A stretch of DNA of 64,000 nucleotides from NCBI GenBank assembly GCA_945956935.1, contig CAMFJD010000003.1:1-64000 (forward strand). The letters run 5' to 3'. Below the pieces are notes generated by a model that was given only the letters and a program-made list of their open reading frames with translations, made no database searches and was not told the origin of the DNA. Positions 35,083-40,027 of the stretch are shown here, one piece after another. A program made the translations under genes and the position numbers. Source of the DNA: an uncultured Bacillota bacterium. GTDB taxonomy: Bacteria > Bacillota_I > Bacilli_A > Culicoidibacterales > ZOR0006. Every line of letters starts with the position of its first letter. The stretch's first letter is position 1.

Positions 35083-35285
35083 GTGCAATCCCCTATCTTT
35101 GATTATATTTTATAATAACTCATTCTATTTTTTAATGAGCATTACTTTCTATTTATTATTGTAACAAAATTATTCTCAGTATCGCAAGTATTCATTCGTT
35201 ATCATACCTATCTTTTCCCAAAACTGATGCTTGCTTCACTTTCCTTTTATTTCGCTTTTATAGTATACTAGTCATGGTGATTAAA

Positions 35286-35900
35286 ATGATACGCTATCCA
35301 AATGGAAAATCTTATCAAAGTGCTCTTATAGAAAAGAAGACTTCTGATAAGCAATTAAAAAAGAAAACGGTTGATTTTGCTAAACGCGGAATGTCACTTG
35401 AGCAAGAATTAAATATTGCAAATGAATATTATCTCGCTCGTGGTCTTGCAGTAATTCATAAGAAACCAACCCCAATTAATATTGTTCATGTGCATTATCC
35501 TAAACGATCTGCTGCTGTAATTAAAGAGGCTTACTTTCAAACTCCATCAACAACTGATTACAACGGCCTTTATAACGGTCACTATCTCGATTTTGAAGCA
35601 AAGGAAACTCGCCTAAAAACCGCATTTCCACTGACAAATTTTCATAATCACCAAATTCAGCATATGGTACATATAAAAAAACTTGGTGGAATTTGCTTTG
35701 TAATTGTCCGTTTCTCGGCTCTAGAACGTACTTTTTTACTCGATGCCGATATTGTCATTCGTTTTTGGCTTGCTAAAGAAACCGATGGACGCAAATCTAT
35801 TCCACTCACATGCTTTGAATCTGAAGGAACTGAAATTCGAAGCATTGGGTACCCTACCCTTAACTATTTAACAACAGTTCAACAAATTTATTTTTCTTAG
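35286..35900 (+). CDS. recU: Holliday junction resolvase RecU
   Basis: A 204-residue homodimeric endonuclease that resolves recombination intermediates. Nearly every family landmark is present: MIRYPNGK start, [48 protein letters not shown] (active-site Asp/Glu/Lys) and the C-terminal [20 protein letters not shown] start at ATG 35286, which matches homologues and has GGTGA 5 bases upstream. ATG 35274 is an alternative, but a -10-like TATACT at 35263-35268 would put the transcript start at it. The recU-PBP1 operon is conserved in Bacillus. Confidence 0.95.
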
Positions 35901-35912
35901 GTGGTGAATAAA

Positions 35913-38621
35913 ATGACCCAAAATCAAATGCCCTCTCGAAGTGCAAAAAAAACTCAACAAACTAAAAAGAAGAAAACAACACGTAAATTTAAGTTTTTTA
36001 ATTGGCGTGTATTTATCGGAACACTTGGTGTCCTCTTTTTAATCGGTGTTGCAACAGGATTTGTAATCTTAAATCATTTTATTGACACGAGACCTACAAT
36101 TGATATCAACGCCTTAAAAGAGGTTCAGTCTTCTGTCATGTATGATAAAAACGGTGAAATAGTTGCGAATTTCAAAGGAACGTACTATGAACCTATTGAA
36201 TACAATCAACTCGCTGACGTGTATATTGATGCTGTTGTTGCAACCGAAGATGCCAACTTTTTTGTCCATAACGGTGTCGATGTAAAACGAATTGCAGCGT
36301 CACTTGTCAGTAACATTATTGCTAATGATATTGTCGGTGGTGGAAGTACGATTACACAACAGCTACTAAAATCTACCACCCTTTCTTCTGAACAAACATA
36401 TGAACGTAAAATTTATGAGGCAATTCTCGCTCTAGAACTTGAACAAAAAATGTCAAAAGAAGAAATTTTCGAAGCTTACGTCAACACAATCAATTTTGGA
36501 CCTGTATATGGTGTCGGTTCCGCAGCACGTTATTATTTTAACAAATCTGTTTCTGAACTCACACTTCCTGAAGCTGCCATGTTAGCTGGTATCCCACAAT
36601 TGCCAAGCTATCATAATCCATACTTGGATATTCAAACAGCAACAGAACGTTACCAAACAGTATTAACGCTTATGGTTCGTCACGGTTATATTACTGAAGC
36701 AGATGCTTCTACTGCAAAACAAATGCCCCTTGCTGACCTACTCCAAGAAAGTGAATATTCAAATTCAAGTGCCTACTATACATATATGTCTGCTGTAACT
36801 GATGAAATTTTAGAAAAAACAGATTTCGATCCAACAACACAGCAGCTCAACATCTATACAAATCTTGACACAAACATGCAAGATTATGCCAATGATTTAC
36901 TTGATTCTGGATTGATTGAATTCCCAGATGATCAATATCAAGCAGCTTTTGTCTTTAGTGATACCCAAACGGGTCAAGTCTATGCTATTGGTGGAGGCCG
37001 TGGACAAAACTCATCATTTGGATTCAATTTCGCTACTGAAGGTGGAAGACAACCCGGTTCAACAATCAAACCACTACTCGATTATGGACCAGGTATTGAG
37101 CGTTATAAATGGTCATCTCATCAACTCTTTACAGATGAAGAATATCAATATTCTGATGGTGTAAAATTTTACAATTATGACTTTAGCTATAAAGGCGATA
37201 TGTCTATGACTGAAGCCATTGCTGATTCACGAAACGTCACTGCTGTTAAGGCTTTTCAAGAAGTTGGTGCCGCATATGCAGATCAATTCATCAAGAAATT
37301 AGGAATTGATTTCGGCGAGCCGCTTCACGAAGCTTACGCACTTGGTGGCGGTAAAGAAGTAACACCATTACAAATGGCTGGTGCTTACGCTACCTTTGGA
37401 AATGGTGGTAAATACAATGAACCTTATTTTGTCACAAAAATTACTGACAATAACGGGAATGTCCTCTATGAACACACCGCTACAAACGAACAAGTCATGA
37501 GTGCAGGAACAGCAGAAATTATGAATAATATGCTTCTTTATTCAACAAACGCTGGACTTGCAGGGCGTGGAAGTATATCAGGAATGAGTGTAGCAGCTAA
37601 AACAGGAACGACAACGTATGCTCAAGAAACAATTGATTCACTCGGACTACCAAACAATGCTGATAAAGATCACTGGTTTGTTGGATATACACCTGAATAT
37701 ACGATGGCTGTATGGGGTGGATACGATACTGTCTCAGCTGAATATTACAATAAATTTGCCAATGCACCAATCGTTAGCTCTATCTTCCGTTCAATGATGA
37801 GTACATTTGGAACATATGGAACGTCATTCCCAACTTCTTCTGAAGTTGTATCAAAAACCGTTCTAAAAAATACATGGCCAACTGTACTCGCTGCAGATGG
37901 GACACCTGCTGAAGAAACAGAAATAGCTTGGTTCTTTAAAGGTACTGAACCAACAACTGTTGGTCAAGCTGTTGAAATATCATTGTCATCACCTAGCGCT
38001 AATCTAAGCGTATCAGGACAGAATATTGTAATGACTTGGCCAGCGGTCACACCACAATTTTCGACAACTGATGAAGAAGTACTCAAACGTTATCAAGAAT
38101 CTGTTGGAAAAGTTATCTATATCGTTTATGGTATTACTGCTAGTGGTGAACAAGTGGAATTATACCGAGGTGATTCCCTAACATACAGCAATACAGTTGA
38201 CTCTTTAAAGCAGTATACTCAATTTGGATTTGTAACTACACTTGAGAATAACGATACTACAAGTGGCATGTCTACTGCAAAAAATCCAGCACTGACTCCC
38301 GAAACTTGTCCAACTGGTCAGGAACTTGTTAACAATAAATGTCAACCTATCACATGTCCAGAAGGTCAACAACTCGTAGGTAATGACTGTCAGCCTATCA
38401 CGTGTCCTGAAGATCAACAACTCGTAGGTAATGAATGCAAACCTGTTGAAACACCTGAATGTCCAGAAGGTCAAGAACTTATCGACGGTGTCTGTCAAGA
38501 ACCATCATCTGTTCCAGACAATGAGGGAAGTGGTGATGTTACACGAACAACAACCAATCGCCTTGCGCCCTTTTCTTGGCCGTTCTTCAGTCCATATTTA
38601 AGTAATATATTTAAATACTAA
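35913..38621 (+). CDS. ponA: class A penicillin-binding protein 1A with Cys-rich tail
   Basis: A 902-residue bifunctional peptidoglycan synthase. A Lys-rich cytoplasmic tail is followed by one transmembrane helix (about 33-53), a GT51 glycosyltransferase domain (catalytic Glu in VATEDANFF, then GGSTITQQLLK), and a transpeptidase domain with nucleophile motif STIK in GGRQPGSTIKP, SRN and KTGT. A fibronectin-III-like domain follows (about 685-780). The C terminus then adds four Cys-rich repeats and a Pro/Phe-rich end that are unusual for this family. GTG 35901 directly follows recU, but ATG 35913 has GGTGG at proper distance. It is co-transcribed with recU, probably localised by GpsB. Confidence 0.95.
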   Translation: MTQNQMPSRSAKKTQQTKKKKTTRKFKFFNWRVFIGTLGVLFLIGVATGFVILNHFIDTRPTIDINALKEVQSSVMYDKNGEIVANFKGTYYEPIEYNQLADVYIDAVVATEDANFFVHNGVDVKRIAASLVSNIIANDIVGGGSTITQQLLKSTTLSSEQTYERKIYEAILALELEQKMSKEEIFEAYVNTINFGPVYGVGSAARYYFNKSVSELTLPEAAMLAGIPQLPSYHNPYLDIQTATERYQTVLTLMVRHGYITEADASTAKQMPLADLLQESEYSNSSAYYTYMSAVTDEILEKTDFDPTTQQLNIYTNLDTNMQDYANDLLDSGLIEFPDDQYQAAFVFSDTQTGQVYAIGGGRGQNSSFGFNFATEGGRQPGSTIKPLLDYGPGIERYKWSSHQLFTDEEYQYSDGVKFYNYDFSYKGDMSMTEAIADSRNVTAVKAFQEVGAAYADQFIKKLGIDFGEPLHEAYALGGGKEVTPLQMAGAYATFGNGGKYNEPYFVTKITDNNGNVLYEHTATNEQVMSAGTAEIMNNMLLYSTNAGLAGRGSISGMSVAAKTGTTTYAQETIDSLGLPNNADKDHWFVGYTPEYTMAVWGGYDTVSAEYYNKFANAPIVSSIFRSMMSTFGTYGTSFPTSSEVVSKTVLKNTWPTVLAADGTPAEETEIAWFFKGTEPTTVGQAVEISLSSPSANLSVSGQNIVMTWPAVTPQFSTTDEEVLKRYQESVGKVIYIVYGITASGEQVELYRGDSLTYSNTVDSLKQYTQFGFVTTLENNDTTSGMSTAKNPALTPETCPTGQELVNNKCQPITCPEGQQLVGNDCQPITCPEDQQLVGNECKPVETPECPEGQELIDGVCQEPSSVPDNEGSGDVTRTTTNRLAPFSWPFFSPYLSNIFKY
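38307..38506 (+). repeat. four tandem Cys-rich repeats in the PBP1 tail
   Basis: Four in-frame units of 15-19 residues with pattern CPxGQxLVxNxCxP, two cysteines each (eight in all), occupy about residues 799-864. The nucleotide sequence repeats the same way (CCAGAAGGTCAACAACTCG-like blocks). They are outside the cell and could form disulfide-linked knots or bind a ligand. Confidence 0.85.
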
Positions 38622-38623
38622 AT

Positions 38624-38665
38624 CAAAAAAGGAGTCCTGATATTCATATCAAGGACTCCTTTTTG
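38624..38665. terminator. bidirectional terminator after recU-ponA
   Basis: The outer stem AAAAAGGAGTCC/GGACTCCTTTTT, extended inside by TGATAT/ATATCA with a bulge, is flanked by A and T runs on both sides. It serves ponA and the convergent floA operon. Confidence 0.85.
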
Positions 38666-39029: not shown

Positions 39030-40027
39030 TATTTCGAATCCGTAATTGTTGTCGTTGCATGTTCGACTTGAGCAATACTTTCACGCATACTTGTATCTGC
39101 TTGAATATTTTGCAATTGATAGTAGTCATTAATTCCTAAATTTCCATTTCGGAAAGCTTGGGCTATCGCTTGTGGCACTTCAGACTCTGCTTCAACAACT
39201 TTCGCTTTCATTTCAACAACTTTCGCTTTCATTTCTTGTTCATAAGCAATTGCCATCGCACGCTTTTCTTCTGCTTTCGCTTGTGCAATTTGTTTATCAG
39301 CTTCTGCTTGATCAGCCTGTAACTTAGCACCAATATTACGTCCTACATCAATATCAGCAATATCAATTGATAAAATTTCAAATGATGTCCCAGAATCCAA
39401 GCCTTTTTCTAATACCGTTTGCGAAATTGAATCTGGATTTTCAAGCACAGACTTATGAGCAGCACTCGAACCTACCGTCGTAACTACACCCTCGCCTACA
39501 CGAGCAATAATTGTTTCTTCGCCCGCTCCACCTACGAGACGCTCAATATTTGCCCGAACTGTTACTTTAGCTTTTACCATAACTTCAATTCCATCTTTTG
39601 CCACTGCAGAAATTAACGGTGTTTCAATCACTTTTGGATTTACACTCATTTGTACAGCTTCAAGTACATTTCGTCCTGCTAAATCAATTGCAACAGCTTG
39701 CTCAAATTCGAGTGGAATATCTGCCCGCTGTGCTGCAATTAAAGCATTAACAACTGTATCTACATTTCCACCTGCTAAATAATGTGCTTCTAATTTGTCA
39801 ATTTCTAACTCTAGTCCCGCTTTAGTTGCCTTAATTAACGGATTAATAATTCGTGCCGGTGCTACACGTCGGAATCGCATCCCAATTAATGTTGCAATTG
39901 AGACATTGACACTTGAAAAGCGTGCTGTAATCCATAATCCAACCGGTACAACTGTTAATAAAATAATTAATAATATAAATACCAATATCATTGGAATAAT
40001 AAAAAATAATACTTCCGTTCCCATCAT
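39029..40027 (-). CDS. floA: flotillin-like protein FloA
   Basis: A 332-residue membrane scaffold of bacterial lipid domains. A hydrophobic N-terminal hairpin (residues 5-28) precedes an SPFH/PHB-like domain with [56 protein letters not shown] and an Ala/Glu/Lys-rich coiled coil with the repeat [15 protein letters not shown]. Identity to Bacillus FloA (YqfA) is visible along the whole length. The ATG at 40027 has GGGAAGG 6 bases upstream, whereas ATG 40033 overlaps the nfeD TGA. The nfeD-floA-third gene order is the expected operon. Confidence 0.95.

What the first reader, a model, noticed from the sequence alone, without database searches (positions are those of the whole stretch)
38307..38506. 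Class A PBP ending in four tandem Cys-rich repeats
After the usual catalytic and FN3-like domains the PBP1 tail has four CPxGQxLVxNxCxP units with eight cysteines, in an extracellular protein. Extracytoplasmic Cys-rich modules are rare in Bacillota PBPs. The repeats could make disulfide knots, bind a wall or surface ligand, or link to another protein. Repeat number may vary between strains because the DNA also repeats.
Basis: partly seen in the sequence, partly recalled or inferred. Interest (0 to 1): 0.55.

Follow-up and report, generated by a model that had tools for sequence, protein, structure and literature searches.

The report
Wall synthase with cysteine-hairpin tail
A bacterium's only two-in-one cell-wall-building enzyme ends in a chain of small cysteine-bearing loops where related bacteria often carry a floppy tail, which may be a sturdier way to reach into the wall.

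Summary
Window 35901-38621 encodes a 906-aa PBP1A-family class A PBP whose only eight cysteines form four C-x10-C units in the tail (38307-38495). It is not an assembly artefact: a sister species (matching Firmicutes bacterium ZOR0006) has five units, identical in residues but with synonymous DNA differences. In both genomes this is the only Transgly-domain protein. The other two genomes held for the order have two such PBPs each, without the array. Similar arrays occur in other exported proteins: hydrolases before a C-terminal anchor, lipoproteins after the lipobox, autotransporter-type proteins. In ZOR0006 an array also ends an LCP wall-polymer enzyme; its ortholog in the window's genome has an acidic Pro/Glu/Thr tail there instead. 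AlphaFold2 models the repeats as four beta-hairpins (pLDDT 79.6, pTM 0.44). Best reading: an anionic, probably disulfide-stapled stalk in the place of the disordered C-terminal tail of many Bacillota class A PBPs (in B. subtilis, implicated in sensing wall gaps). Disulfides and function are inferred. No DsbA, VKOR or CcdA passed cut-off in the genome, but a membrane-anchored CxxC thioredoxin-like protein is encoded. New variant of a known kind.

The parts
35274..35900 (+). recU gene directly upstream
   Evidence: Pfam RecU E 1.4e-59; ORF
35901..38621 (+). class A PBP, PBP1A family, 906 aa (an ATG lies at 35913)
36003..36086 (+). N-terminal transmembrane helix, residues 35-62
   Evidence: helix in the low-confidence model; hydropathy segment
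36153..36674 (+). Transgly (GT51) domain, residues 85-258
36945..37787 (+). Transpeptidase domain, residues 349-629
37965..38243 (+). strand-rich region between transpeptidase and repeats, residues 689-781; FN3 not confirmed
   Evidence: secondary structure of a low-confidence model; no Pfam match
38307..38342 (+). Cys unit 1, CPTGQELVNNKC
   Evidence: hairpin
38355..38390 (+). Cys unit 2, CPEGQQLVGNDC
   Evidence: hairpin
38403..38438 (+). Cys unit 3, CPEDQQLVGNEC
   Evidence: hairpin
38460..38495 (+). Cys unit 4, CPEGQELIDGVC
   Evidence: hairpin
38499..38618 (+). C-terminal end, residues 867-906, poorly conserved, hydrophobic aromatic finish
   Evidence: pN/pS ratio 0.67 against ZOR0006
38626..38664 (+). 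stem-loop followed by T run, probable intrinsic terminator
   Evidence: -21.7 kcal/mol, z -6.87

Best explanation
The tail is an array of roughly 16-residue units, each a small beta-hairpin probably pinned by its own C-x10-C disulfide. Together they make an anionic, semi-rigid, probably protease-resistant stalk at the far end of the only class A PBP. It stands where many Bacillota class A PBPs carry a disordered C-terminal tail and most likely does a similar job, reaching into the wall so that the synthase engages it or finds thin places. Shown: the array, its spacing, its restriction to this genus among the PBPs examined, sequence constraint on the units, and replacement of an equivalent array by an acidic Cys-free tail in LCP orthologs. 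Predicted: hairpins. Inferred: disulfides, stalk, wall-reaching role.
For: C-x10-C within units in 53 of 56 units across 9 proteins (3 are C-x7-C), while 43 gaps between neighbouring units vary from 1 to 7, which suggests pairing within a unit. AF2 of the repeats: mean pLDDT 79.6, a hairpin in 4 of 4 units. ZOR0006: 28 synonymous and 0 non-synonymous differences summed over 10 pairs of its 5 units. Sole Transgly protein in both genus genomes. LCP swap: an LCP protein of G001 (PF03816, E 4e-38) ends in five C-x10-C units; the ortholog in the same gene neighbourhood of the window's genome ends in P/E/T repeats without Cys. Net charge of the repeats -11 over 68 residues here and -15 over 84 in ZOR0006. 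Similar arrays sit next to anchors in other exported proteins. B. subtilis PBP1 has an anionic C-terminal disordered domain that stimulates synthesis on wall damage (PMC13270295, passages).
Against: No redox chemistry was tested. DsbA-type, VKOR and CcdA families gave no match over cut-off in the window's genome, and a parity test of Cys in exported proteins was inconclusive (17 even, 8 odd, p 0.11). pTM 0.44 leaves the arrangement of the hairpins uncertain. The C-terminal disordered region of C. [quoted passage not shown] Only two species are known here to carry the PBP array, and the LCP swap is one ortholog pair.
Confidence: 0.5

Rival explanations
1. The units are binding modules: each hairpin presents a surface that binds a wall polymer, a partner protein or a host ligand, and several copies add avidity.
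For: Repeat number varies while residues are constrained: 0 non-synonymous differences among the five ZOR0006 units. Arrays recur on surface proteins of several kinds.
Against: Residues between the Cys differ widely among carriers (alignment), and an equivalent array is replaced by an acidic Cys-free tail in LCP orthologs.
Confidence: 0.2
2. Filler or free-thiol tail: a tandem repeat that grows by slippage, not disulfide-bonded in a reducing gut, of little consequence.
For: No DsbA, VKOR or CcdA over cut-off. Units 2-3 are a recent-looking DNA repeat. C. difficile PBP1 tolerates loss of its tail (PMC12539705).
Against: ZOR0006 units diverge in DNA but not in residues; pN/pS of the repeat region is 0.29, against 0.40 for the preceding region and 0.67 for the C-end (unit-to-unit alignment is ambiguous). 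All Cys are kept in pairs.
Confidence: 0.2
3. Intermolecular tether: the Cys form disulfides with other PBP copies or with another Cys-tailed protein such as the LCP of ZOR0006.
For: A second Cys-array wall protein is present in G001.
Against: No second array was found in the window genome by search or in the stretches scanned, so no obvious partner there; fixed C-x10-C spacing suggests pairing inside a unit.
Confidence: 0.07

Closest known systems
Class A PBPs with C-terminal extracellular disordered tails (B. subtilis PBP1, C. difficile PBP1, streptococcal PBP1a)
   Same: Same enzyme class; extension at the same end, outside the cell; anionic as in B. subtilis (PMC13270295 passages; PMC12539705 passages).
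   Different: Here the extension is predicted as ordered hairpins with paired Cys rather than disordered; streptococcal tails are described as protected by O-glycosylation (PMC12539705 discussion passage).
Other exported proteins with C-x10-C arrays: GHL10-type hydrolases and lipoproteins of Bacilli, alphaproteobacterial autotransporter-type proteins
   Same: Same Cys spacing and a similar CPxGxxxVxGxC pattern.
   Different: There the array usually lies next to a membrane anchor or between parts of the protein; in the PBP it is at the distal end. Common descent of the arrays was not tested.
LCP (LytR-CpsA-Psr) protein of G001/ZOR0006
   Same: C-terminal array of five C-x10-C units on another wall enzyme in the same genus.
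   Different: Different enzyme; the array is absent from the ortholog in the window's genome.
TNFR-type and EGF-type Cys-rich stalks of animals
   Same: Elongated series of small Cys-bearing modules; best rows by structure.
   Different: Z at most 2.9 with rmsd 4 to 8; no Foldseek match at E <= 0.001. Not evidence of kinship.

Membership tests
Class A PBP, PBP1A family (TIGR02074) | GT51 glycosyltransferase and transpeptidase domains on one chain | tested here: met
   Transgly 188 bits, Transpeptidase 130.3 bits
Class A PBP, PBP1A family (TIGR02074) | score above the curated cut-off | tested here: met
   518 against 508.75 bits
Class A PBP, PBP1A family (TIGR02074) | SxxK, SxN and KTG motifs | tested here: met
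   STIK, SRN and KTGT read in the translation; KTG located by script
Class A PBP with C-terminal disordered tail | extracellular extension after the transpeptidase domain | tested here: met
   277 residues follow the transpeptidase match
Class A PBP with C-terminal disordered tail | tail is disordered | tested here: inconclusive
   repeats predicted as hairpins, block pLDDT 65-89; last 45 residues under 50, but in a poor full-length model
Class A PBP with C-terminal disordered tail | tail senses or helps repair wall gaps | not testable with these tools
   needs a genetic test
EB module (PF01683) | score above Pfam's gathering cut-off | tested here: not met
   18 against 24.3 bits, E 0.003
MXAN_6577-like cysteine-rich protein (NF041328) | score above cut-off | tested here: not met
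   tested on array L048 (23.6 against 100 bits) and on the ZOR0006 PBP array, which did not list it
TNFR cysteine-rich domain | same fold | tested here: inconclusive
   Z at most 2.9

The most novel reading that the evidence does not exclude
The array is a redox-gated ruler. With its hairpin disulfides intact it is a stiff anionic probe that spans wall gaps and licenses the only class A PBP to synthesise; when reduced it collapses and retunes wall repair. The same module is plugged onto other wall enzymes such as LCP, as an interchangeable alternative to disordered tails.
Probability: 0.1. Interest if true: 0.75.

Novelty: new variant of a known kind. Interest (0 to 1): 0.45.

Why it matters
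C-terminal tails of class A PBPs are thought to sense wall gaps through disorder. These two sister species offer a natural experiment: a structured, cysteine-bearing tail on the sole class A PBP, and an LCP ortholog pair in which an array and an acidic Cys-free tail replace each other. That makes it testable whether disorder, charge, length or stiffness is what counts. It also bears on how Bacillota without a recognised DsbA/VKOR pair might form extracellular disulfides.

Tried and rejected
Assembly artefact: rejected, since an independent genome (ZOR0006 record JTLC01000044.1, locus L040) has the homologous array.

Common in the PBP family: rejected for the sample. Of 22 PBP sequences (20 of 60 genomes at E <= 1e-100), only the two of this genus have the array. 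For 6 of the 22 the script found no KTG motif and gave no tail count; their total Cys is 2 or 3.

Viral origin: the viral-contig scan gave 4 loci, each with a single isolated unit; not pursued.

Conserved C-terminal aromatic peptide shared with other families: not supported by shuffles (smallest fraction 0.022 among 40 comparisons, uncorrected; the two genus members do not match each other, 0.708).

Disulfide signature by Cys parity: inconclusive. Cys depletion of exported proteins depends on how they are called (0.35% of mature residues, 0.76%, against 1.09% and 1.06% in ORFs without hydrophobic segments); the second set holds evident false positives.

VKOR: one hit below cut-off (18.4 against 27.5 bits) in a 52-aa frame opposite a long plus-strand ORF; treated as spurious. 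The DSBA-type protein of G002 has no evident signal sequence.

Structural kin: no Foldseek match at E <= 0.001; VIA rows were all at Z under 3. The full-length AlphaFold2 model had mean pLDDT 35.3 with two sequences, so only its secondary structure is mentioned.

Paper searches on this repeat: (the last for the letters CPEGQ, CPDGQ, CPTGQ). From the listings none appeared to describe such a PBP; only the open library was searched. Daniels 2010 (cysteine exclusion) and Brunet 2022 (PBP1 disordered tail) were not held and are known here only through citing papers.

Full report
The finding holds. Window 35901-38621 (+) encodes a 906-aa protein with Transgly and Transpeptidase domains, scoring above the PBP1A-family cut-off, just downstream of recU. 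All eight cysteines lie in four C-x10-C units at 38307-38495. Random placement does not give this.

Distribution. The same-genus genome G001, whose PBP matches the record of Firmicutes bacterium ZOR0006 (locus L040), has a 939-aa ortholog with five units. These are identical in residues but differ in DNA: 28 synonymous and 0 non-synonymous differences summed over ten pairs. So unit number differs between species and the residues look constrained. The order holds four genomes in this collection. The two genus genomes have one Transgly protein each and the other two genomes have two each; none of those four other PBPs has Cys in its distal tail. Three overlapping scans of the class or phylum found array matches in 9 of 395, 5 of 392 and 12 of 394 genomes, with different queries and thresholds. 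Among the matches whose frames I read only the two genus PBPs were PBPs; L031 and L108 are masked and L104 was not resolved. A scan of the species-genome collection gave 13 confirmed loci from 38 pattern matches, of which 1 is a PBP, that of ZOR0006. Its patterns were strict, so absence there is not proof.

What the unit is. Across nine proteins 53 of 56 units are C-x10-C and three C-x7-C, while 43 gaps between neighbouring units run from 1 to 7 residues, mostly 3 or 4. Fixed spacing inside and variable spacing between units suggests that the two Cys of one unit pair. AlphaFold2 on the window's repeats, with eight related arrays in the alignment, gave mean pLDDT 79.6, pTM 0.44 and a hairpin in each of four units. 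Solved structures gave only weak similarity to TNFR- and EGF-type stalks, Z at most 2.9. The tail reaches no Pfam cut-off; the EB module falls below its own.

Where else it sits. In other Bacilli the arrays lie just before a C-terminal hydrophobic segment in large hydrolases (Pfam GHL10 tested for L046 and L048 only; the others judged by eye) or just after a lipobox-like start in lipoproteins. Four alphaproteobacterial MAG proteins of autotransporter type carry them (Pfam tested for L041 only). Shared ancestry of these arrays was not tested.

A natural swap. In G001 a second protein, with an LCP domain (PF03816, E 4e-38), ends in five C-x10-C units. Its ortholog in the window's genome, 67% identical in the alignment and in the same neighbourhood (genes I recognise as yvyE-, mreB- and murA-like), ends at that point in acidic P/E/T repeats with no Cys. 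An array and an acidic tail thus replace each other in orthologs. This is the strongest argument for a stalk-like role, and it rests on one ortholog pair.

Analogy. B. subtilis PBP1 has an anionic 14.9-kDa C-terminal disordered domain that stimulates synthesis on wall damage (PMC13270295, passages). Many Bacillota class A PBPs have such tails; in C. [quoted passage not shown] The array here is anionic too, -11 over 68 residues. I therefore read it as a structured counterpart of such tails, in which stapling may protect against proteases. The role is inferred from position, charge and exchange; it is not shown.

Redox. Thioredoxin_4, VKOR, DsbD_TM and DSBA gave no match over cut-off in the window's genome or G001. 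A membrane-anchored thioredoxin-like protein with CSAC is encoded in both, with a neighbour bearing CGDS. NCBIfam's PedC/BrcD bacteriocin disulfide isomerase model is its best hit but well below cut-off (49.5 against 120 bits). A similar pair is in G002, so it is not specific to array carriers. The LCP domain has four Cys conserved between the two species; an actinobacterial LCP has a stabilising disulfide (PMC6381275, passages). Cys parity in exported proteins was inconclusive. A paper on clostridial enzymes notes anaerobes with DsbA-like proteins but no regenerating partner (PMC12453122, passages).

Verdict: an uncommon variant of the class A PBP tail, found here in one genus only; new as a variant, with an inferred function.

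Noticed in passing
L111 and L115 7981-9615 (G001); L151 14282-15730 (G000:C7:54282-55730): LCP orthologs whose C-terminal tails differ in kind: five C-x10-C units in G001, acidic P/E/T repeats in the window's genome.
   Followed up: yes
L072 2793-3805 (G000:C16); L074 1809-2922 (G001); L090 (G002): Neighbouring pair of membrane-anchored thioredoxin-like proteins, one CxxC and one CGDS, with distant similarity to PedC/BrcD.
   Followed up: partly
window 38626-38664: Strong stem-loop with a T run just after the PBP gene, missed by the consensus terminator scan.
   Followed up: partly
window 38577-38618 and the C-terminus of the L040 PBP: Both genus PBPs end in an aromatic, hydrophobic stretch, but the two do not align with each other.
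   Followed up: partly
L041, L042, L044, L045: Alphaproteobacterial autotransporter-type proteins with C-x10-C arrays in their N-terminal part.
   Followed up: no
window 39191-39235: Perfect 21-bp tandem repeat (2.1 copies) inside the neighbouring minus-strand 334-aa gene.
   Followed up: no
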